DNA of 37,177 nucleotides, from positions 1 through 37,177 of the forward strand of contig WGND01000017.1 in NCBI GenBank assembly GCA_016124805.1, given 5' to 3'. This document shows, in pieces, positions 997-29,928 of this stretch. Positions within the stretch are counted from its first letter, which is position 1, and each line of letters starts with the position of its first letter. The translations under genes and the position numbers were made by a program. The notes beneath the pieces were generated by a model. The model made no database searches, had not been told where the DNA came from, and saw only the letters and a list, made by a program, of their open reading frames with translations. Source of the stretch: Hyphomicrobiales bacterium. GTDB taxonomy: Bacteria; Pseudomonadota; Alphaproteobacteria; Parvibaculales; Parvibaculaceae.

Positions 997-1830
997 CTAG
1001 CGGCCCTGACGCGGTTGGGAAAGCCCTGCCGCAAAGCCCGACCGGATCGTCGGTTCCGATTCACCTGCCGTCAAACCAATTGCGAGCGCCGCCGCCAGCA
1101 AGCGCGACGCCGCCGCGTCCTCACTGATGCAGTCCTGAGCGGCGAACTGACCGAAGACGAAGGCGGCTTTGTTGAGCGCGTAATTGCGGGTGCCTGGCCG
1201 CGCTCGTCGCAGCTCAGCTTCCTCCATATCGATAATGGTGTGCGGCTTTGCCGGTGCCGATAATTGCCGGACCTGAGGCCGTGGCAGCTTCTCGGCTGAG
1301 GCTTTCATCTTCAGCCAGTATGGCATCGGCGCGGGTGTCACCAGCCCGTCTAGGCAGAACCGAGAGGGCGAGTTGACCCACTCGTAACGCCGCCCGGACT
1401 TGTGCATGGATGGCGGCGCTATGATTGACCCGCCCGCGCTTCGAATGTCGAGGCCTGGCGCAATGTGCCCGGCCCGGTTTTTCAACGTCACGTCGGGCTG
1501 GATGAAATAATAGTGGCGGCCACCGCTAGGTGTCGCCACTTCAATGGTGTCGCCGAAGGGTTCAAAGCCGCTGGCGAAGATCTGGCGCAGGCTCTCCACG
1601 CCAGCCGGGAAGTCGACATCGAGGACCGCGATCCCGTTTGCACCGCCACAGGCCAGCCCGACATTTGCCCAGGGAAAGGCCTCTGCCCATTCTTCAATCT
1701 GGTCAGGCATCGTGCTGGCCGCATGGCAGCCGCCCTTGATCAACGGCATCTTGTTGCGGGAAACCGGAAAGATTGCCCAGCCCCACTCCTCCAGAAAGGG
1801 CTTTGCCATTTCGGCAAAGGTGAAACTCAT
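997..1830 (-). CDS. Stand-alone primase-polymerase (Prim-Pol, AEP superfamily)
   Basis: The 277-residue protein matches the bifunctional DNA primase/polymerase N-terminal domain of plasmids and phages, which belongs to the archaeo-eukaryotic primase superfamily and makes primers and extends them on single-stranded DNA. The family motifs are present: an N-terminal GWAIFPV segment (17-23), the catalytic pair in VLDVDFP (D71, D73), TPSGGRHYYF (100-109, with H106), the third acidic residue in GLDIR (D128), and a following GGSIIAPPS (133-141). The active site therefore looks complete. The usual C-terminal helicase (D5/VirE or RepA type) is absent, and only about 125 residues without recognisable motif follow. 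The start overlaps the methylase stop by ATGA. Mu-like phages normally rely on host priming, so a primase gene downstream of the tail genes is unexpected. Confidence 0.85.
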   Translation of the reverse strand: MSFTFAEMAKPFLEEWGWAIFPVSRNKMPLIKGGCHAASTMPDQIEEWAEAFPWANVGLACGGANGIAVLDVDFPAGVESLRQIFASGFEPFGDTIEVATPSGGRHYYFIQPDVTLKNRAGHIAPGLDIRSAGGSIIAPPSMHKSGRRYEWVNSPSRFCLDGLVTPAPMPYWLKMKASAEKLPRPQVRQLSAPAKPHTIIDMEEAELRRARPGTRNYALNKAAFVFGQFAAQDCISEDAAASRLLAAALAIGLTAGESEPTIRSGFAAGLSQPRQGR

Positions 1831-2651
1831 CTGCCACCACCCGTTATAATCAGCTCGCCTGTTGGCTTCGTGAGCTTGCCGCCTCCCACGGAGTAGCGAG
1901 TTTCGACCGACTTGATCCTGAAGCCCTTGAAGACCTCACGCGCACCTGGTGTGTCGTTGATCGACAAAATGAACCGCCCAGCTATCCCCCGAAGCTGATC
2001 GGCCAGCAGGGCGAAGTCATCGCGGTTGAACATCTCCTTGCCGTAATAGCCCTCTGAGCCCCAATAAGGCGGGTCCAGATAGAGAAGCGTGGCTGGTTTG
2101 TCATAGCGCTTGATAAACTCGCGATAGGGAAGGCATTCAATCACCACACCCGCCAGTCGCTCATGCAGAGCTTCAAGGCGCGGCACCAGCGTGTTGAGAT
2201 TGAAGCTGGCATCTCGCGCCGTTTGCGTGCCAAAGGTTCGGCCAGCCACCTTGCCGCCATAGGACAGCCGCTGCAGATAGAGGAAACGCGCCGACCGTTC
2301 CAGATCGGTCAAGGTCTCGGGTGGTGTGGCGCAGAGCCGTTCGAAGGCGGTGCGGCTTGTGATCTGGAATTTCAGGGTCTCGATGAATTGCGGATAATGA
2401 CGCTGGAGGATTCGAAAAAAGATGGCCACATCATGCGAAAAATCATTGATGACCTCAGCTCTCGGCACCCTTTCCCGCCGCAGGAAGACGCCGCCCATCC
2501 CGCAAAACGGCTCTGCGTAAGTGTCGTGAGGCGTGGCCTCGATGAGCTTGACCAGACGGCTGGCAAGTAACCTTTTGCCCCCGACATAGGCCGAAGCAGG
2601 CGACACGGGCTTGACGGACCGCGAAGGACGACTTTTAGGCATGGACTCCAT
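1827..2651 (-). CDS. DNA adenine methylase, D12 class (Dam-like)
   Basis: This 274-residue enzyme should transfer a methyl group from S-adenosylmethionine to N6 of adenine. AYVGGKRLLASRL (21-33) and FCGMGG (49-54) form the SAM-binding motif I, and DPPY (193-196) is the catalytic motif IV in the alpha-class order of D12 enzymes. Length is normal for Dam (about 270). The target site cannot be read from sequence; GATC is the family default. A second ATG at 2642 is a possible start, but neither start has a well-spaced ribosome site. The gene sits where Mu carries mom, a DNA modification gene, so protection from host restriction is the likely role. It is translationally coupled to the primase-polymerase gene. 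Confidence 0.9.
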   Translation of the reverse strand: MESMPKSRPSRSVKPVSPASAYVGGKRLLASRLVKLIEATPHDTYAEPFCGMGGVFLRRERVPRAEVINDFSHDVAIFFRILQRHYPQFIETLKFQITSRTAFERLCATPPETLTDLERSARFLYLQRLSYGGKVAGRTFGTQTARDASFNLNTLVPRLEALHERLAGVVIECLPYREFIKRYDKPATLLYLDPPYWGSEGYYGKEMFNRDDFALLADQLRGIAGRFILSINDTPGAREVFKGFRIKSVETRYSVGGGKLTKPTGELIITGGGR

Positions 2652-13539: not shown

Positions 13540-14163
13540 TCAGGCCTCCTCTTCTTTGAATGTTTGCGTGGATGTGGCGTCTGCGTTTTCGTCGTCTGGC
13601 AATTCATTCGCAGGGGCGACATTGCCGAGTGGCGGCAGATCCCAATTAACGTGGAAGGTGGAGAAGTCATCGAGCTCTTCGATCTGCGCATCGATGTCCG
13701 GCGCGTCGCTATAGATCGTTGTGAACTCCACGGCGAAAACCGATATGCGCCGCGTCTCCAGCTTGCCGCTGAAAAGCGGACGTACCGGCCCCAGGGAAAG
13801 CCCACTGATGTCGAGGCCAAAATCCTGCCGCTTGAGCAACCCCTGGGCGTCGATGATCATCTGATAGACGCCTACCTCGCCTGCCGCGCCATGGCGCGTT
13901 GCCGCTTCATTGCGGACATTCTGCGAAGCGAGCATCACCGCAAAACGCGCGGTCTGCTGGTCATAGGCACCCGTTTCGCCAGAGGGCGTGCTGCCGAGAT
14001 AGGCGACATAGGCCGCAGGATACTGGATCAGCTTGTTGAGCTGGTCATCGTCCGCAAACTGCCCACCCCAGCTCTCAAGGGCTCGGTACTTGTAGCCCAG
14101 CACACCCGCGTCGCTGGCTGCCTTCATGCGGGCGAGAATGGCATTTTCGACAAGGCCGATCAT
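13540..14163 (-). CDS. DUF1834 protein, tail terminator-like (Mu gp37)
   Basis: The 207-residue product begins MIGLVENAILARMKAASDAGVLGYKYRALESWGGQF, the standard start of DUF1834. Members lie between gpG and DUF2635 and are thought to act at the head-tail joint or tail end. The C-terminal 45 residues are acidic. The start overlaps the upstream gene by ATGA. Confidence 0.9.
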   Translation of the reverse strand: MIGLVENAILARMKAASDAGVLGYKYRALESWGGQFADDDQLNKLIQYPAAYVAYLGSTPSGETGAYDQQTARFAVMLASQNVRNEAATRHGAAGEVGVYQMIIDAQGLLKRQDFGLDISGLSLGPVRPLFSGKLETRRISVFAVEFTTIYSDAPDIDAQIEELDDFSTFHVNWDLPPLGNVAPANELPDDENADATSTQTFKEEEA

Positions 14164-14714
14164 TGGAAGGCCCCCATCACATAATCATCCACGATGCGCA
14201 TGATCTCGCCCTCATCCTTGGCGTTAATGCCAAGGATGGGGCGGGCGGGCATCTCGAATTCATAGGCACCGACATCATGGTCGCTGGCGAAGTTGCTTTT
14301 CGAGCGTTTCACAAAGCGATTGCCCAGGGCACCCGACGCGTCGACCTTTCGGTAGATGGTCTGGCGGCGCGCCTGGCGTTTGACGGTGCCACCAAAATGC
14401 ATCATCGCCGCATAGATGACATTGGTGCCCTCTTCGACGCTCGTGTCTGTGGCATGAGGCTGGAAGCTGGAAAAGAGGCGCGCGGTCAGGGTGAGCGTTT
14501 TGCCGCCTTCGCGGCGCGCGCGCTTTGACTGCTTCCAGGGCAGGCCGTCCGGGCCGGTCTCGGTGATAAAGCGCTGATGCGTTGAAAAATCCACATAGCC
14601 GCCGATGGCCTCCATCAGGGGGCGCATATGCGTGACACGCGCCAGCGCATTGTTGAGCTTCTTCTGCAGAGCCCCCGCGCCGTCCAGGTTGATTTCGATG
14701 GCAATGCCGGTCAT
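14160..14714 (-). CDS. Phage virion morphogenesis protein (Mu gpG family)
   Basis: The 184-residue protein has the family pattern: an N-terminal beta-helical start (MTGIAIEINLDGAGALQKKLNNAL), then FSTHQRFITETGPDGLPWKQSKRARREGGKTLTLTARL, and ARPILGINAKDEGEI near the end. In Mu, gene G lies between F and I in the head cluster; here it has moved to the connector cluster next to DUF1320, as in many non-enterobacterial Mu-like phages. The start shares a base with the DUF1320 stop. Confidence 0.93.
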   Translation of the reverse strand: MTGIAIEINLDGAGALQKKLNNALARVTHMRPLMEAIGGYVDFSTHQRFITETGPDGLPWKQSKRARREGGKTLTLTARLFSSFQPHATDTSVEEGTNVIYAAMMHFGGTVKRQARRQTIYRKVDASGALGNRFVKRSKSNFASDHDVGAYEFEMPARPILGINAKDEGEIMRIVDDYVMGAFQ

Positions 14715-15136
14715 CAGAGCCCCCGCAGCCCGTCGCGCGACATGATGCGCTGGCCGACATCCGCATAGACCTGGTCGTCCCGGCTTTCAGGTTCGCGGCC
14801 TGCGATATCGAGGACAGCCTCGCCTTTTGAGATGGCCTTGAGACGCGCGATCGCATCCTCATACCGGGTGCGCACTTCCTCTGTGGCACCGGAGTCATAA
14901 AGCTTGAAGCGGGCGATGTCGCATTCGAGGTCGACAAGCAGATCGGGCACCGACGCCAGAGGCAGGTCGTAGCGCGCGGCAATATAGGAATTGATGATGT
15001 TGGCGGCTTCCGTCAGCGCTTGCGCCATGCGGGCCGCATCGATAAGGCCAGTGGGCTCGTCGGCCCGGTCGGTCAACTGGACCAGCTCGCGCTCGGAAAA
15101 CTTCGTCAGCATGATAGCCTGAGATGCATAGCTCAT
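14714..15136 (-). CDS. DUF1320 head-tail connector protein (Mu gp36)
   Basis: The 140-residue product matches DUF1320: MLTKFSERELVQLTDRADEPTGLIDAARMAQALTEA, then INSYIAARYDLPL, then DLECDIARFKLY. The family is the Mu gp36 head-tail adaptor. The start overlaps the stop of the acyl carrier protein gene by ATGA, so the two are translationally coupled. Confidence 0.94.
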   Translation of the reverse strand: MSYASQAIMLTKFSERELVQLTDRADEPTGLIDAARMAQALTEAANIINSYIAARYDLPLASVPDLLVDLECDIARFKLYDSGATEEVRTRYEDAIARLKAISKGEAVLDIAGREPESRDDQVYADVGQRIMSRDGLRGL

Positions 15137-15381
15137 GCACTCACCCGCCCATCGATATAGGTGACGATATCGCCGACGCTTTCGAACTGGTCGATGACCT
15201 CGTCATCAATCCGCAATTCGAACTTTTCTTCCAGCGTCATCGCCATCTCAATCCTGTCCAGGCTGTCGCAGCCCAGATCAGCAACCAGCGTCATTTCATG
15301 CGTCATCTCTTCAGGCGCGACCGGGCAGCCTGTGATGCATTCAGCGATGATTTCGCGGAGCTGAAGTGAAAGCTTGGACAT
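15133..15381 (-). CDS. Acyl carrier protein (phosphopantetheine-binding)
   Basis: The ATG of MSKLSLQLREIIAEC has a good ribosome site (AGAGG about 6 bases upstream) and gives 82 residues, near the 78 of E. coli AcpP. The protein follows ACP from end to end: helix 1 (LREIIAECITG), LVADLGCDSLDRIEM with the D-S-L attachment site (S40), the acidic recognition helix (IEMAMTLEEKFELRIDDE), and a final SVGDIVTYIDGRV. Holo-ACP synthase of the host could therefore add 4'-phosphopantetheine to S40. It lies between the HI1506-like gene and DUF1320 and is coupled to the latter by an ATGA overlap. No fatty acid or polyketide enzyme gene is present in the phage. Its role is unknown; options are a structural or chaperone use, acylation of a virion part, or competition with host ACP partners. 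Confidence 0.93.
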   Translation of the reverse strand: MSKLSLQLREIIAECITGCPVAPEEMTHEMTLVADLGCDSLDRIEMAMTLEEKFELRIDDEVIDQFESVGDIVTYIDGRVSA

Positions 15382-15457
15382 GAACCTCTGACCTCTTTGT
15401 GAGTTGCCGACCGGGCTGTCAGGTCCCGGTCGGCGCACGGCTACAGTTGCCGTGAGA

Positions 15458-16024
15458 CTATTTCTTGCCGGTCGCCTTGCCGGTGGCGGGCGGTGCTTTG
15501 CCCTTCTCCTTGTCAGGCCCGGGCGGCGGCGGTGTTTTGCCCTTCTCCTTGTCAGACTCGGACGGCGGCGGTGTTTCGTCATCTGTGGTGGTGGCCGGCT
15601 CACCTGGTCCGGATGCTCTGGTGATGGCGCGCTGCTGATCTGTCACAGCGTCATTGAGTACCGGCTGGAGATGTTCCGCGCGTTCGGCATCCGAAAGCAG
15701 GTTCCAGTCAGCCACAGTCAGCTTGCTCTGATGCAGCGCAATGGCGACCAGCTCTGCCAGCTTGATCGACTTCTCGCCACCCAGCGGGATCTGCAGCAGG
15801 CCGCTCGCAAGCGCGGAGATCGGCCCTGTTGCTTTGCCCTGGATGATCGGGGCCATTTCGTCGGCATCGATTTTTTCGATGGTCAGCATCGGCTCGTCTT
15901 CAATAAGCCGCAGTTGTTCCTTTGTGAAAAAATCGAGCGGATAATTGGTTGGCCCGATGGGGTGCGCGATACCGGCCCGGCGAAAGCCGGGCCGTGCGCT
16001 GGTGATTGAATAAACCTTCACCAT
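15458..16024 (-). CDS. HI1506/FluMu gp35-like head protein
   Basis: I start at MVKVYSITSARPGFRRAGIAHP, three bases after the major head gene, for 188 residues. PGFRRAGIAHP followed by DFFTKEQLRLIEDEPMLTIEKI is the conserved N-terminal segment of HI1506/FluMu-type proteins that follow the major head gene. The middle is helical. The last 45 residues are low-complexity and charged, with a 13-residue near-repeat (SDKEKGKTPPPPGPDKEKGK...) encoded by a 39-bp tandem repeat at about 15497-15574. Function is unknown. The 76-bp gap to the ACP gene holds only its ribosome site. Confidence 0.82.
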   Translation of the reverse strand: MVKVYSITSARPGFRRAGIAHPIGPTNYPLDFFTKEQLRLIEDEPMLTIEKIDADEMAPIIQGKATGPISALASGLLQIPLGGEKSIKLAELVAIALHQSKLTVADWNLLSDAERAEHLQPVLNDAVTDQQRAITRASGPGEPATTTDDETPPPSESDKEKGKTPPPPGPDKEKGKAPPATGKATGKK

Positions 16025-16026
16025 GA

Positions 16027-16920
16027 TCAGGCGAGCCACGGCACGACGAGCAGCTCGGCTGTGCCTGCATAGACGTTGTCTGCACCGGCTGCGTTGCGCT
16101 GCGCCTTCAGGACTTCCAGGCCCGCCTTTTCATGAGACGGCGGCACGACCAGAAGATTGGGCGTGATGCCCAGCGGACGGCCTTCGTCGCCCTTGAGCTC
16201 GCCCATGGCAGCACGGGCTGCCGCATAGGTGTCAACATCGAGCGCTTGTTTGGAGCCATAGGCCAGCTGCGGCAGGCCGAACCCGGCATTGCTGCGTCCG
16301 TCCACGCCGAAGACGAACTCATCGGTCATGAAGACGCGCTGGTCGTTGAGGTCCGTCATCGACCTGAAGCTATAGTCACGGCGCTTCTGGCGGATGAGCG
16401 GCTTCACGGCGCGCGATGTATCGAGCAAATACCAGGGCGTGCCTGCACCGCCACCATAGTTTGACCAGGAGCCCTGCGTACCGTCGGCCAGAACGACCGG
16501 ATGATCAGTGTCGAAGAAATACTGGCCATCATAGCAAGTCTTGGCAAAGCCGGTCTTTAGCAGCCCGAAGATCAGCTCGTCAGGATGCACAGCCGAGAGG
16601 CGTCCCATTTCAGAGACCATCGGCGTGAAGACGCCATATGTGTCGTCTTCAATGTGATCGCGATTGACCGCGATACTGCTTTCGAACTTCTTGTTCTTGA
16701 TCGTGTAGTCATGCTGCTTCAGGTTCTTGATGACACGCTCACCAATCCATTCACGAAAGCCGGGCATCTGGCCAAGCCAGCCATAGACTTCCTGTGAGGT
16801 TGTTGAGGGCACATCCATTGCCAGCTTGTTCCACACAGGCTTGACGCCTGTGAAAGCCATATTGAAGGCTGTGTTAAAGCCGGTATAGAGACCGGTGACA
16901 TTAGCGCGATTTACTTCCAT
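16027..16920 (-). CDS. Major head protein (Mu gpT)
   Basis: The 297-residue protein is the Mu-like major head subunit: MEVNRANVTGLYTGFNTAFNMAF at the start, then LKQHDYTIKNKKFESSIAVNRDHIEDD, then GQYFFDTDHPV, and a final NLLVVPPSHEKAGLEVLKAQR. It has an HK97-like fold by family. It follows the protease and decoration genes as in Mu-like phages. Confidence 0.96.
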   Translation of the reverse strand: MEVNRANVTGLYTGFNTAFNMAFTGVKPVWNKLAMDVPSTTSQEVYGWLGQMPGFREWIGERVIKNLKQHDYTIKNKKFESSIAVNRDHIEDDTYGVFTPMVSEMGRLSAVHPDELIFGLLKTGFAKTCYDGQYFFDTDHPVVLADGTQGSWSNYGGGAGTPWYLLDTSRAVKPLIRQKRRDYSFRSMTDLNDQRVFMTDEFVFGVDGRSNAGFGLPQLAYGSKQALDVDTYAAARAAMGELKGDEGRPLGITPNLLVVPPSHEKAGLEVLKAQRNAAGADNVYAGTAELLVVPWLA

Positions 16921-18950: not shown

Positions 18951-20225
18951 CTATTTGGAGCGCCGATAGGCCAGCGTGCCACGCCGCTGATTGAGCAGAT
19001 AGTTCGTACGCTCGGCATTAAAGCCGGTGACGCCGGACCAGCCGTGCATGGCAACATCGAAAAGCATGAAGACCGGCACCTCCTGCCCTTCTATAACGAA
19101 GCGCGCCATATAACGGCGGAAGAGCGTGTAGTCATTCGTGCGCGGGCTCTTTTCCCAGGTCCACCAGATTTCGTCCGGGTCCTTGATCGTGTCAGCCATC
19201 AAAAGAAGCGCCGTTTCCCGGCCCCGCTTGGTTACCTTGAGCCGCCCGTCAGGCCGCTCGAACAGCGCGCGGCTGATTACAAGCGGGTCGCCAATCACAT
19301 CAGTGAAGATCTGCGGCGTCTCGGCGGACGCCCCGAACTCGCCCAGGAACTCATCGATATAGACCTCATCCGACAGGCCGGTCGGCAGCAACCGGCTGGC
19401 CGGTGCCGGGCGTGGTGGCGGCATGGGCAGATCAGCAGGCGGGTTGAGTGCAGGCGTTCCGAGAGGTCCGTCAATCGGCGGTGGCGTCACGCCCTTCATA
19501 TGAGCGCGACCTGCATTATAGGAAAAGCCCGGATCGATGCCCGCCGGGACCTTTGTAACTTCGCCGGTCCGGTTGTTGCGAAATTCCGATGTGTTGCTGA
19601 GGAAGTCCTCGATGTCGGCATCCGACGAAACCCCCAGCCCCATATTCTCAAGATCACGCTGAGAGAGCTGCAGCACCTGGCACCGGCACTTCCAACCGTT
19701 TGGAGGGTAATGCGTCTCCCAAAAAGGATGATCGACCGGCAGGATGATGGCATTCCAGGCGCGATGCTGGGGCCGCGTGCGGCCATCGAGCACAGCGACA
19801 TACATCAGGTAGGGGCGTGCCGCCTTTGTCTTCTGGATACGCTCCCAATGCCCCGCCGCATAGCTGGTTCGCATATTGGTGTCGAAGATGATGCCGAGGC
19901 GGCGGGTGGAGCCGAGCTGGACATTGCGCTCTTCGCCGGTCAGTGGATCTGCAACGAGAGCGCGGCCCCACCAGCCTTTCTCCTGAAGCACCGGCGTCAA
20001 TCTTTTCTTGAAGTCTTCGAACGTGGTGCCATCGCGAATGGCGGCATCCATCGCCTGGCGAATATCCTGCAGAATGTCGTAGCGCATCGCCTTGGCTACG
20101 GTGAAGGCGCGGGCATGCTCTTCCTGCCAGGTGTCCTGCCACGAATAGCCGAGCTTGTAGCCCTTGCCCTCGAAATACTTGATGGCTTCAGCGGGCGGCA
20201 GATTCTTCAGCTGGACAGCGGTCAC
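18951..20225 (-). CDS. Head morphogenesis protein gp30 (gpF-like) with C-terminal PBECR-type nuclease domain
   Basis: The 424-residue protein starts at a GTG sharing its first base with the upstream stop. Residues 1-240 are the minor head/SPP1 gp7-type domain: FDTNMRTSYAAGHWERIQ (114-131), RTRPQHRAWNAIILPVDHPFW (149-169) and NGWKCRCQVLQLS (176-188). After a proline-rich linker (245-280) comes a second domain (about 282-424) with DPDEIWWTWEKS, a central YMARFVIEG strand, GWSGVTGF and RRGTLAYRR. These match the phage Barnase-EndoU-ColicinE5/D-RelE-like (PBECR) nuclease fold often fused to head proteins. Such a domain may be injected with the DNA. Confidence 0.88.
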   Translation of the reverse strand: MTAVQLKNLPPAEAIKYFEGKGYKLGYSWQDTWQEEHARAFTVAKAMRYDILQDIRQAMDAAIRDGTTFEDFKKRLTPVLQEKGWWGRALVADPLTGEERNVQLGSTRRLGIIFDTNMRTSYAAGHWERIQKTKAARPYLMYVAVLDGRTRPQHRAWNAIILPVDHPFWETHYPPNGWKCRCQVLQLSQRDLENMGLGVSSDADIEDFLSNTSEFRNNRTGEVTKVPAGIDPGFSYNAGRAHMKGVTPPPIDGPLGTPALNPPADLPMPPPRPAPASRLLPTGLSDEVYIDEFLGEFGASAETPQIFTDVIGDPLVISRALFERPDGRLKVTKRGRETALLLMADTIKDPDEIWWTWEKSPRTNDYTLFRRYMARFVIEGQEVPVFMLFDVAMHGWSGVTGFNAERTNYLLNQRRGTLAYRRSK

Positions 20226-26364: not shown

Positions 26365-26759
26365 GTTTTCCCCCGAGCTGCGCCGCGACCACGAGAGAGC
26401 GCGTCGTCAAAAATTTGGGTAAGGCGGTTCTCGTGAGACCGGAGAATATCGCTGAGACTCTCAAGCCGACCGTCCAGACCGGCGATGATCGCTTCCGCCT
26501 TGCTCAGCTCGACGCGCAGCGCGTTCATTTGCTGCGCCGACGGTATGTGCTGGAGAGCCCCTTCAAGATGGCTGAGACGTTCGCCGAGCTTGCGCTCGGT
26601 CTCTGCCCTGGCACTCTCAACGGTGTCAATTGTTTCGGCTAGTGCCCGGAACTTGCCGGACCTGTCCAGCTGCAGGAGGCGGTAGAACGCAAGCACACTG
26701 ATCACCAGCGACGAACCGGCGATGGCGACAGACAGAACATTTAGCAGAATAGGACTCAT
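26361..26759 (-). CDS. DUF2730 membrane-anchored coiled-coil protein
   Basis: The 132-residue protein has one N-terminal membrane segment (about 6-28) and a long coiled coil after it (35-115), the layout of DUF2730. Its place next to holin and endolysin genes suggests a spanin-like or lysis accessory role, which is inferred. Both ends overlap neighbours by ATGA. Confidence 0.85.
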   Translation of the reverse strand: MSPILLNVLSVAIAGSSLVISVLAFYRLLQLDRSGKFRALAETIDTVESARAETERKLGERLSHLEGALQHIPSAQQMNALRVELSKAEAIIAGLDGRLESLSDILRSHENRLTQIFDDALSRGRGAARGKT

Positions 26760-26995
26760 CGACGCTTCAATCTCCGTCTCGCTTGGCGGCGCGCCTGCTC
26801 GCGGCGCTGTTCACATTCGATGCACCGGCGCGCGCTCGGCATCACTGCGCGACGCTCGGGTTCAATTTCGTCGTCACACTCGATGCAGTTTTCGACGATA
26901 ACCAAAGGTGCATTTAGCTTTGCCTGCAGGGCAGCGACGGCAACGTTCCGCTGCCGCAGCTCAAGCTCCTGAGCCCGATCAACCTCATCTGCCAT
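26756..26995 (-). CDS. DksA/TraR-type C4 zinc finger protein
   Basis: The ATG of MADEVDRAQELELRQ overlaps the holin stop by 11 bp and gives 79 residues. C37-x2-C40 and C58-x2-C61 form the zinc site of the DksA/TraR family, with a helical N-terminus and a basic tail (RRQARRRLKRR). Such small TraR-like proteins can bind RNA polymerase through the secondary channel. They are common beside lysis genes in Mu-like phages, with unknown role there. Confidence 0.88.
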   Translation of the reverse strand: MADEVDRAQELELRQRNVAVAALQAKLNAPLVIVENCIECDDEIEPERRAVMPSARRCIECEQRREQARRQARRRLKRR

Positions 26996-27533
26996 TCGTG
27001 GTCCCCGTCGGCGACATGATGCGGTCAAGCATCTTTGTTTTCGTCGCGGAGCCTGAAGACGAGCCATAGAAATAATTGGCGATCTGGGAAACCAGCGCGC
27101 CGAGCGCACCGAGCATAATCATCAGCGGGTCCTTCGCCGAGGATGGCATCTCCACAAACATCAGGGCCGTGAGAATGCCGAAGAAACCGACAAAGACACC
27201 CAGCGCGAGAAGCCCCGGCATCTTGTCCTTTGTCTGGATTTCGCGATTGCGGGCACTGTCACGGTCGGCGCTGGCGATGCGCTCCAGATCGACATCAAGC
27301 TCCGCCATCTTTTCCTTAAAGGCGAAGTCAGCCTTTTTCAGCTCAAGAAGCTGGTCAGGCGTTGCCCGTGTGACAGCATCGGCAATGTCAGCCTCACTGG
27401 CATTCTCGTCACCCAAAAGGATAGACGCCAATTGGCGGGCAGCCATGCCGCCCAGGGGGCCGCCTAGTGCTGTGCCGAGCGTCGGCGCGACAGCGGAAAG
27501 GATGCTTTTTGCTTTTTGCCAGACATCGCTCAT
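26985..27533 (-). CDS. Holin, 3-TM GTA-type
   Basis: The 182-residue protein matches the 3-TM holin family named for gene-transfer-agent release: a hydrophobic N-terminal region with APTLGTALGGPLGGMAARQLAS, a helical charged middle (DFAFKEKMAELDVDLERIASADRDSARNREI), and two membrane segments at about 110-130 (GLLALGVFVGFFGILTALMFV) and 140-160. It should permeabilise the inner membrane so the endolysin can act. It overlaps the endolysin stop by ATGA. Confidence 0.9.
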   Translation of the reverse strand: MSDVWQKAKSILSAVAPTLGTALGGPLGGMAARQLASILLGDENASEADIADAVTRATPDQLLELKKADFAFKEKMAELDVDLERIASADRDSARNREIQTKDKMPGLLALGVFVGFFGILTALMFVEMPSSAKDPLMIMLGALGALVSQIANYFYGSSSGSATKTKMLDRIMSPTGTTNGR

Positions 27534-28841: not shown

Positions 28842-29506
28842 AACAGCACCGCCTTGGCTTTGCGGATCTGTGCGCCCTGGTCCCGAATGATCTTGTCGGC
28901 GTCGGTCGCGGTAAGCCGGAGGACCTCGACAAACCTGAATTTCTGGCCTTGACGGTGCATGATCCGCCACTGTGCTTCGATCACACGCGCGCGGTCGTTG
29001 TTACCAATGACATTGCCCGCTCGGTCTTTGTATGGAAGCCAGGAGACACCTCCTTCCCGCTGCGCCCAGCTTTTGAGGGCTTCAATGACCTTGTTGCTGG
29101 CACCCTCATCAAGCCACTGAAGCGCGTCAATGCCTGTTGCTTTGCCGCCGCTCACGCGCTTTGCAAAGGCCGTCAGCGCCTTCTCAGAGGCGTCTGAGAT
29201 GACACCAAGGTGGTAGAGAGAAAGCCAGAGTGCTCGAATTTTCCCGTGCAGCGCGCTGCCCGCTGGCCTTGCGGACGGACGCCAGGCGTTCCCCTTTTTG
29301 ACCGGCTTGAAACCAAGGCTTTTGAAGTGTTCAACCAGTTCCGTGAGCTGCGCATCTGTAAGGTCCGCGCTGCTCCTTTTGCCGTAGCGCGTGTCGAGAA
29401 TGAGACGATAGGTCTCGTCATCAAGCGCCAGGGCCTTTTTGGCGACATGCACCTTGCTGGTGAGAGCCCGGCGGACTGTCGATGTCTTTGCGCTCGTCGT
29501 TTTCAT
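28838..29506 (-). CDS. gemA: GemA regulatory protein (DUF1018)
   Basis: The 222-residue protein matches the GemA family of Mu: KVHVAKKALALDDETYRLILDTRYGKRSSADLTDAQL, then LVEHFKSLGFKP and KIRALWLSLYHLGVISDASEKALTAFAKRVSG. In Mu, GemA affects host gene expression and DNA supercoiling. It lies in its usual place near the end of the early operon. Start overlaps the DnaA-like gene by ATGA. Confidence 0.92.
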   Translation of the reverse strand: MKTTSAKTSTVRRALTSKVHVAKKALALDDETYRLILDTRYGKRSSADLTDAQLTELVEHFKSLGFKPVKKGNAWRPSARPAGSALHGKIRALWLSLYHLGVISDASEKALTAFAKRVSGGKATGIDALQWLDEGASNKVIEALKSWAQREGGVSWLPYKDRAGNVIGNNDRARVIEAQWRIMHRQGQKFRFVEVLRLTATDADKIIRDQGAQIRKAKAVLL

Positions 29507-29928
29507 GACGGCTCTACCTTCACGTCAACAAGCTTGGCTTCCAGCATCACGCGCAAGGCAGCCAAACGAGCGGACCGCGCATCACGGCGCGCCTGCCATT
29601 CACGGCAACGCTTGATGGCGTAACCGACTGTGGTGTGATCGCGCCAATAGAAGTGGCTAACCTGCGCCTGCGTGTAGCCCGTAAGTTCTGTCGAGAGATA
29701 CATCGCCATCTGCCGAGTCTCAGTCAGCGGACGGTGTCGCTGTAAGCCTCTGAGCTGCTGCACAGTGAAGCCGCTTTCGTGCGCGATGTTTTCGACGATG
29801 ACCGTCAGCGGCCCCGGACGGTAGTTGCGTTTGATCTGATCGCGAATCTGCGTTGTGAGAAGCGCAATTTGCGTGTTCATCACTTCAAGATGAGCCGCCA
29901 TCTCTTCAAGTGTTGCAACATCTGTCAT
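29503..29928 (-). CDS. Stand-alone DnaA domain IV-like protein
   Basis: Residues about 40-112 of this 141-residue protein match the DNA-binding domain IV of DnaA: VIVENIAHESGFTVQQLRG, then the diagnostic TRQMAMYLSTELTG (71-84) and YWRDHTTVGYAIKRC (94-108). The DHTTV residues contact the DnaA box in known structures. The AAA+ domain is missing; instead there is a short helical N-terminus. It could bind DnaA boxes on host or phage DNA and so affect initiation or local transcription. It is coupled to the gene upstream and to gemA by ATGA overlaps. Confidence 0.85.
   Translation of the reverse strand: MTDVATLEEMAAHLEVMNTQIALLTTQIRDQIKRNYRPGPLTVIVENIAHESGFTVQQLRGLQRHRPLTETRQMAMYLSTELTGYTQAQVSHFYWRDHTTVGYAIKRCREWQARRDARSARLAALRVMLEAKLVDVKVEPS

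What the first reader, a model, noticed from the sequence alone, without database searches (positions are those of the whole stretch)
15133..15381. Complete acyl carrier protein gene inside the head/connector operon of a Mu-like phage
The 82-residue product has every mark of a functional ACP: the DSL phosphopantetheine site (S40), the acidic recognition helix and normal length. It is coupled to the DUF1320 gene by an ATGA overlap, so it is made with virion proteins, late and probably in quantity. No fatty acid or polyketide enzyme accompanies it. Possible roles: a virion component or assembly chaperone, donor for acylation of a capsid or baseplate part, a sink for holo-ACP synthase or CoA, or a mimic that binds host ACP partners such as SpoT or LpxA. 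Sequence shows the ACP; the role is inference.
Basis: partly seen in the sequence, partly recalled or inferred. Interest (0 to 1): 0.82.

Follow-up and report, generated by a model that had tools for sequence, protein, structure and literature searches.

The report
Acyl carrier gene in phage cargo slot
A small bacterial virus related to phage Mu carries an intact-looking acyl carrier protein gene between its head genes, in a spot where some related viruses keep other optional genes, a few of them resembling shields against bacterial immunity, so the protein is more likely a tool used inside the infected cell than a part of the virus particle.

Summary
On the minus strand, 15133-15381 encodes an 82-residue ACP (PF00550, E 1.2e-10), with S40 in DSLD, a confident predicted ACP fold (pLDDT 92.7) and an ATGA overlap with the gp36 (DUF1320) gene of a Mu-like phage. 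It is not the host AcpP (28% identity). No lipid-synthesis enzyme was found in 48 window ORFs. One other phage, L003, has the same gene in the same slot (ACP 60%, gp36 81%, capsid 82% identical; S40 kept; pN/pS 0.53). Of 74 locus clusters with capsid and gp36 visible, 2 carry an ACP there. Four others hold Acb2/Tad1-hairpin proteins (PF24729, anti-CBASS/anti-Thoeris sponge family); a few hold other small genes. A perfect 10-bp hairpin precedes the ACP gene in both phages; perfect stems precede cargo in four other loci. The gene is best read as optional cargo. I infer a late-made holo-ACP that engages host ACP-dependent proteins; lipid supply and counter-defence decoy both remain open, and a dispensable virion role is not excluded. 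'In quantity' is unsupported. Phage ACPs are already known; I found no account of one in this slot.

The parts
15133..15381 (-). acyl carrier protein gene, 82 aa, DSLD with S40
   Evidence: AlphaFold pLDDT 92.7 with helices 3-15, 40-54, 60-65, 69-81; 50 best PDB matches TM 0.76-0.84 by query length
15406..15434 (-). perfect 10-bp GC-rich stem with 9-nt loop upstream of the ACP ribosome-binding site
   Evidence: stem identical in L003 with a changed loop
15436..15454 (-). second, 6-bp stem-loop directly upstream of the first
   Evidence: stem identical in L003
14714..15136 (-). gp36 (DUF1320) head-tail adaptor gene, start overlaps the ACP stop (ATGA)
   Evidence: PF07030 1.5e-33; phrog_195 head-tail adaptor
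15458..16039 (-). gp35-like gene (FluMu_N domain), upstream border of the slot
   Evidence: PF17891 9e-8
16027..16920 (-). major head subunit gpT
   Evidence: PF10124 2.6e-125
14160..14714 (-). tail completion / virion morphogenesis protein, next gene downstream of gp36
   Evidence: PF05069 3.5e-23

Best explanation
The gene is optional cargo (a moron-like insert) in a slot between gp35 and gp36 of the late operon of Mu-like phages. Shown: ACP sequence with the recognition residues and serine kept, a predicted ACP fold, purifying selection, the same slot in two diverged phages, no ACP in the slot of the other relatives surveyed, and a conserved hairpin in front. Inferred: it is expressed with the late genes, converted to holo-ACP by the host AcpS, and acts inside the infected cell by engaging host ACP-dependent proteins, most simply by adding to or redirecting the acyl-ACP pool in the last phase of infection, rather than as a virion part. 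The hairpin probably sets expression relative to the capsid genes (attenuation or mRNA end protection).
For: ACP identity and predicted fold; residues of the recognition face kept (that they contact AcpS is recalled). Same slot and ATGA coupling in L003, a contig that the gp36 and gpT searches also found on their own. pN/pS 0.53, bootstrap 0.33-0.80. ACP in 2 of 74 locus clusters; Mu has nothing in the slot. Other cargo between gp35 and gp36: PF24729 in 4 clusters, DUF7220 in L150, short hydrophobic ORFs in L049 and L050. Perfect stems of at least 9 bp lie directly before the cargo in 6 of the 11 clusters labelled as cargo-bearing: window, L003, L033, L105, L139, L142. The two ACPs form a clade apart from host AcpP (100/97).
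Against: Only two phages carry it, so rarity or loss could mimic cargo status. No expression, phosphopantetheine or phenotype data. No partner enzyme is encoded, so redirecting acyl flux rests on host proteins alone. No sigma-70-like promoter at 14600-16100, unlike a classical moron. The four PF24729 loci have another capsid family (MCP_b3) than the ACP loci (gpT), so the slots are equated by gp36 and position only. An optional head-module gene can still be a virion part: gene h of PaMx73 (PMC4378225, passages). In two other phages the ACP gene lies near structural genes: upstream of an annotated major capsid gene in ctuI7215, and before an Rz-like spanin and a structural protein in CBB. Most surveyed loci show only about 1.5 kb each side of gp36, so an ACP elsewhere in those phages is not excluded. 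Constraint is weaker than in gp36 (0.22) and gpT (0.21), though its interval overlaps those of gp35 (0.42) and the G gene (0.40).
Confidence: 0.48

Rival explanations
1. Counter-defence decoy or sponge: the ACP binds, through its acidic helix II with or without its prosthetic arm, a host immune or stress protein that uses or senses ACP, and thereby blunts abortive infection.
For: The same slot carries Acb2/Tad1-hairpin proteins in RcapMu, L033, L036 (27.7 bits, cut-off 27) and L139, and the one PF24729 gene found in 98 related genomes sits in this slot. Four of 18 other phage or viral-contig ACP-like proteins aligned have lost the serine yet keep most of the acidic face.
Against: The window ACP keeps S40. 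No defence system that senses ACP is known to me. PADLOC, a library of defence proteins and not of anti-defence ones, gives no match. The PF24729 loci belong to another capsid type. One paper search for ACP with anti-defense and phage found nothing.
Confidence: 0.2
2. Auxiliary metabolic gene for lipid synthesis that benefits the lysogen or membrane fluidity, as proposed for roseobacter prophage acpP genes.
For: PMC8224337 (passages) reports acpP in 8 roseobacter phages, two of them named among those that increase at higher latitude, and interprets it as lipid metabolism.
Against: The gene lies inside the late structural operon, normally silent in a lysogen (Mu biology, recalled). No fab gene was found in the window ORFs scanned. 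Whether the roseobacter prophages named are Mu-like, or have acpP in this slot, was not in the passages seen.
Confidence: 0.15
3. Virion component, assembly chaperone, or acyl donor for a head or connector protein.
For: Position between gp35 and gp36 and translational overlap. Optional head-module genes of Mu-like phages can encode virion proteins (gene h of PaMx73, PMC4378225, passages). ACP genes near structural genes in ctuI7215 and CBB.
Against: No ACP in the slot of 72 of 74 locus clusters with a comparable head region, nor in Mu; no acyltransferase among the 48 window ORF translations scanned with Pfam.
Confidence: 0.12
4. Recent capture of a host acpP copy, or a neutral passenger without function.
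For: GC is lower than in neighbouring genes in the window (0.538 against 0.577-0.627), though not in L003; constraint weaker than in gp36 and gpT.
Against: 28% identity to host AcpP, separate clade, pN/pS below 1 with the recognition residues kept, and the same gene in a second phage.
Confidence: 0.05

Closest known systems
Bacterial type II acyl carrier protein AcpP (PF00550; TIGR00517)
   Same: length, DSLD site, acidic helix II, predicted fold
   Different: below the TIGR00517 equivalog cut-off; loop I longer by 3 residues in the alignments; R43, K53 and R57 in or near helix II; no fab neighbours
Phage-encoded ACPs of other, mostly larger phages (phrog_5934, phrog_4154; e.g. Lu11, CcrMagneto, Serratia 3M, eugene, HMSP1-Susan)
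   Same: ACP domain carried by a phage, function unclear (PMC5463345 passages)
   Different: no annotated gp36 neighbour in the 13 records opened (in some only 600 bases each side were seen); two of those proteins (Lu11, 3M) lack the serine
Roseobacter prophage acpP genes (PMC8224337)
   Same: ACP gene in alphaproteobacterial prophages, in at least one the only metabolic gene (passages)
   Different: three of them carry fabG-acpP-fabF; slot and phage type of the lone acpP cases not seen
Acb2/Tad1-hairpin proteins in the same slot (RcapMu44)
   Same: small gene between gp35 and gp36 with an overlap to gp36 and a GC-rich hairpin in front
   Different: different protein family; capsid of another family
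Accessory genes in regions of genomic plasticity of Pseudomonas Mu-like phages (PMC4378225)
   Same: short optional genes at fixed sites among core genes, including anti-CRISPR genes and a virion protein gene (passages)
   Different: the passages seen do not describe the gp35-gp36 site or an ACP

Membership tests
ACP superfamily (PF00550) | score above the curated PF00550 cut-off | tested here: met
   42 bits against 20.8
ACP superfamily (PF00550) | phosphopantetheine serine in a DSL motif | tested here: met
   D39-S40-L41, aligned with E. coli S36
ACP superfamily (PF00550) | ACP helical fold with the serine at the start of helix II | tested here: met
   by prediction only: helix 40-54, pLDDT 92.7; best PDB matches are ACPs, TM 0.76-0.84
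ACP superfamily (PF00550) | 4'-phosphopantetheine on the protein | not testable with these tools
   needs mass spectrometry
AcpP of fatty acid synthesis (TIGR00517 equivalog) | score above the equivalog cut-off | tested here: not met
   61.5 bits against 70.45, so it is not filed as an AcpP equivalog
AcpP of fatty acid synthesis (TIGR00517 equivalog) | close kinship with the host AcpP | tested here: not met
   28% identity; separate clade
Accessory (moron-like) gene of Mu-like phages | present in some and absent from other related phages at a fixed site between conserved genes | tested here: met
   2 of 74 locus clusters have ACP in the slot, others have other cargo or none
Accessory (moron-like) gene of Mu-like phages | base composition unlike the neighbours | tested here: inconclusive
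   0.538 against 0.577-0.627 in the window, but 0.578 against 0.575-0.636 in L003
Accessory (moron-like) gene of Mu-like phages | own promoter | tested here: not met
   no sigma-70-like site at 14600-16100, 0.4 expected by chance; other promoter types not covered
Acb2/Tad1 nucleotide sponges (PF24729) | match to the PF24729 profile | tested here: not met
   at E<=0.001 P0001 matches only PF00550 and PF14573 in Pfam; no PF24729 match in the own genome

The most novel reading that the evidence does not exclude
The gp35-gp36 gap of Mu-like phages is a hairpin-marked counter-defence slot, and the ACP in it is an immune-evasion protein: a carrier-protein decoy that ties up a host factor which monitors or uses ACP. 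That would make phage ACPs, including the serine-less ones in other phages, a class of mimics rather than metabolic genes.
Probability: 0.17. Interest if true: 0.85.

Novelty: new member of a known kind. Interest (0 to 1): 0.5.

Why it matters
Phage-encoded ACPs are known from many phages and, in the paper passage seen, their function is called unclear (PMC5463345). A small transposable phage with a single ACP cassette, no partner enzyme found and a slot that relatives fill with immune-evasion-type genes is a tractable system for asking what a phage gains from an ACP. The slot itself is a place to look for unknown counter-defence genes.

Tried and rejected
Recent host capture: rejected (28% identity to host AcpP; tree). 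Intrinsic terminator: the window hairpin has no T-run after it and was not called by the scan, so I call it attenuator-like only. Known RNA family: no Rfam match reaches its gathering score at 15350-15500. Hairpin as a host repeat: of 98 genomes only G000 has an exact copy, in the window; 19 of 98 have a match with up to 2 mismatches against 9 of 98 for the backward control. The excess comes largely from one related stem with an ATTTCCAT-type loop in nine genomes of the same genus, which I did not follow up.

More members: the two-row profile in 40 genomes of the order at E<=1e-12 gave one besides G000, not placed in a phage by the queries used (L011, same gene); in 398 genomes of the phylum at E<=1e-13 it gave 15 besides G000. 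None of these 15 loci matches a phage query other than ACP, and 8 of the 15 have a FabF-like motif beside the ACP. DNA motifs for DLGCDSLD in viral contigs gave 28 stretches; the only one with Mu-like head genes was the L003 contig again. Plasmids: 68 records match; the one opened for context, a Rhizobium plasmid, is not a phage region by its annotation. GenBank phages: 57 records match the ACP and 204 match gp36; none of the 57 is among the 60 of the 204 that were listed. Of the 'Bacteriophage sp.' faecal hits three were fetched and two read for context; both look like bacterial chromosome by eye and were not counted as phage ACPs. Of the four hits, L005 and L008 lie among bacterial genes by eye; L006 and L007 were not read for context.

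A mended reading: I first took the Bise hairpin (L109) as one before cargo. It lies after the PF13876 gene and before a 68-aa ORF that may be gp35-like, and PF13876 lies in the capsid-to-gp36 interval rather than surely between gp35 and gp36. It is now left out of the hairpin count, 6 of 11 instead of 7. Odds changed with the facts told against my reading (optional virion gene h; ACPs near structural genes): best explanation 0.50 to 0.48, virion rival 0.10 to 0.12.

Rows dropped and limits: of 99 loci given to the slot survey, L079 and L100 showed no gp36 and L060, L063 and L151 no capsid gene, leaving 94. L202-L206, fetched later, are not in the 74 clusters. The cargo labels were set by me; that of L142 rests on short ORFs without a family match to the one tested. 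L044, L095, L096 and L134 have long slots that I read as gp35-like or fused frames and did not label. Related-loci scans by short peptide patterns and can miss relatives. Genome searches saw samples only: 385 genomes of the class, 40 of the family and 398 of the phylum for gp36, 398 of the phylum for gpT.

Full report
What is there. The window carries a Mu-like phage on the minus strand: Mu-type transposase, MuB and GemA, portal, gpF and protease, gpT capsid, gp36 and gp37, sheath, tape measure and a terminase-like protein, and baseplate genes. The 82-codon gene at 15133-15381 lies between the gp35-like gene and gp36, and its stop overlaps the gp36 start as ATGA. It is an acyl carrier protein by Pfam, PHROGs, NCBIfam and PDB sequence search. 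It falls below the TIGR00517 equivalog cut-off, so I file it as a member of the ACP superfamily and not as AcpP.

Does it look functional? The serine and the acidic face (positions aligned with E. coli AcpP D35, S36, L37, D38, E41, M44, E47, E48, F50, I54, D56) are kept in the window and in L003; that host enzymes read this face is recalled. AlphaFold with a 10-row alignment gives mean pLDDT 92.7 and a helix II that begins at S40. The 50 best Foldseek matches in the PDB have TM 0.76-0.84 by query length, and their titles are of ACPs or ACP complexes. Between the two phages the gene is under purifying selection, pN/pS 0.53 (0.33-0.80). That is weaker than in gp36 (0.22) and gpT (0.21); the interval overlaps those of gp35 (0.42) and the G gene (0.40).

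Where it comes from. Host AcpP is only 28% identical. In a tree of 56 rows the two Mu-phage ACPs are a pair (100/97) and the host AcpP groups with its genus relatives; 81 columns, long branches and an unsettled bootstrap resolve little beyond that. The donor is unknown.

Who else has it. Searches of viral contigs by protein, two-row profile, gp36, gpT and DNA motif gave one further carrier recognisable as Mu-like in the stretches seen, the contig of L003, with ACP 60%, gp36 81% and gpT 82% identical. The gp36 and gpT searches found that contig without help of the ACP. The next-nearest viral-contig capsids (49-60% identity) lack the ACP in all seven of eight loci where gp36 is visible. Of 99 loci surveyed, 94 show capsid and gp36; these form 74 clusters, of which 2 carry an ACP in the slot. 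Phage Mu has gp35 running directly into gp36.

The slot. In other loci the same gap holds other small genes. PF24729 (Acb2/Tad1 hairpin) is in RcapMu44 (E 3.5e-13), L033 (4.1e-17), L036 (3e-6, 27.7 bits against a cut-off of 27) and L139 (2.1e-18). RcapMu44 is annotated as similar to a cyclic-nucleotide binding domain and, like the ACP, its end overlaps the gp36 start. L150 has a DUF7220 protein, and L049 and L050 have short hydrophobic ORFs, without a Pfam match in the two tested. Bise has a PF13876 protein somewhere between capsid and gp36. In 98 related genomes one PF24729 gene was found, and it is the one in this slot. A caution: the four PF24729 loci have the other capsid family, so the slots are equated by gp36 and position only. 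That Acb2 and Tad1 are sponges against CBASS and Thoeris is from abstracts in the listing, and recalled.

The hairpin. Between gp35 and the ACP gene lie two stem-loops: a 6-bp stem at 15436-15454 and a perfect 10-bp stem at 15406-15434. Fold z-scores are -3.0 in the window and -4.6 in L003. Counted by hand, after two leading gap columns, 72 of 81 aligned columns are identical; none of the 9 changes falls in a stem, and 6 fall in the two loops. There are no compensatory changes. Perfect stems of at least 9 bp lie directly before the cargo in the window, L003, L033, L105, L139 and L142, that is 6 of 11 clusters labelled cargo-bearing; L036 has no gap to hold one. RC1 (L106) has such a stem between gp35 and gp36 without cargo, which suggests that the stem can come before the cargo. 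Several other loci have stems just after the capsid gene instead. None of the stems before cargo is followed by a clear T-run; the one in Bise is, but it lies elsewhere in the interval. I read the element as an attenuator or mRNA end protector after the capsid genes; this is inference, and it weakens the claim that the ACP is made in quantity.

Function. Shown: a complete ACP gene in an optional position. Inferred: late expression, holo-form made by host AcpS, action inside the cell. The most economical step is that it joins the host acyl-ACP network late in infection. The rival decoy reading rests on the neighbours of the slot and on a side observation: of 18 other ACP-like proteins from phages or viral contigs aligned, four (Lu11, Serratia 3M, L004, L073) have lost the serine while keeping most of the acidic face, so some phage ACP-like proteins cannot carry an acyl chain in the usual way. 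The window protein keeps its serine. Against my preference for action in the cell: an optional head-module gene of Pseudomonas Mu-like phages encodes a virion protein (PMC4378225, passages), and in ctuI7215 and CBB the ACP gene lies near structural or lysis genes.

Literature. PMC8224337 (passages) reports acpP in roseobacter prophages and suggests lipid roles; the phage type and gene position of the lone cases were not in the passages seen. PMC5463345 (passages) states that phage ACP homologues are known and their function unclear. PMC4378225 (passages) describes short optional genes at fixed sites in Pseudomonas Mu-like phages, including anti-CRISPR genes. Searches for 'phage-encoded acyl carrier protein' (0 papers), for acyl carrier protein with anti-defense and phage (0), and with Mu-like and prophage (3 papers, of which only PMC8224337 was opened) gave no account that I saw of an ACP in this slot. 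Further searches are. The library holds open-licence PMC papers only.

Verdict. The gene is best seen as optional cargo, a new member of the known but unexplained class of phage ACPs, with an informative context.

Noticed in passing
L156 (Lu11), L158 (Serratia phage 3M), L004 7917-8150, L073 3102-3338: ACP-like proteins of phages or viral contigs that keep most of the acidic helix II but have D, E, D and Q in place of the phosphopantetheine serine: possible carrier-protein mimics that cannot be charged.
   Followed up: partly
L087 2542-4499 (ctuI7215) and L163 376-1389 (CBB): ACP genes close to late genes in unrelated phages: upstream of an annotated major capsid gene, and before an Rz-like spanin and a structural protein.
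   Followed up: no
window 18951-20225: gpF-like head protein has a C-terminal PBECR2 nuclease-toxin-like domain (E 1.5e-27).
   Followed up: no
L105 2211-2501 (RcapMu44): Gene noted as similar to a cyclic-nucleotide binding domain is a PF24729 Acb2/Tad1-hairpin protein; RcWaterboi has a gene of the same length and position, not scanned.
   Followed up: partly
L031 1285-1311 and L033 1072-1098, counted on the gp36 strand: Nearly the same GC-rich hairpin in two genomes of the host family; L033 has a PF24729 gene after it, while I saw none in L031: possibly decayed cargo.
   Followed up: no
G002, G005, G008, G009, G010, G017, G021, G023, G025: A stem related to the window's (GCCG.CCGGG with an ATTTCCAT-type loop) occurs in nine genomes of the host genus.
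   Followed up: no
L084, L085 (MT835512, MT835553): GenBank 'Bacteriophage sp.' faecal scaffolds whose ACP neighbours read like bacterial chromosome (PlsX-, RNase III-, SMC- and FabD/H/F-like, judged by eye).
   Followed up: partly
window 997-2651: D12-class adenine methyltransferase and a Prim-Pol protein near one end of a transposable phage.
   Followed up: no
window 29503-29928 and 26756-27109: DnaA C-terminal HTH domain protein and a DksA/TraR-type zinc-finger protein.
   Followed up: no
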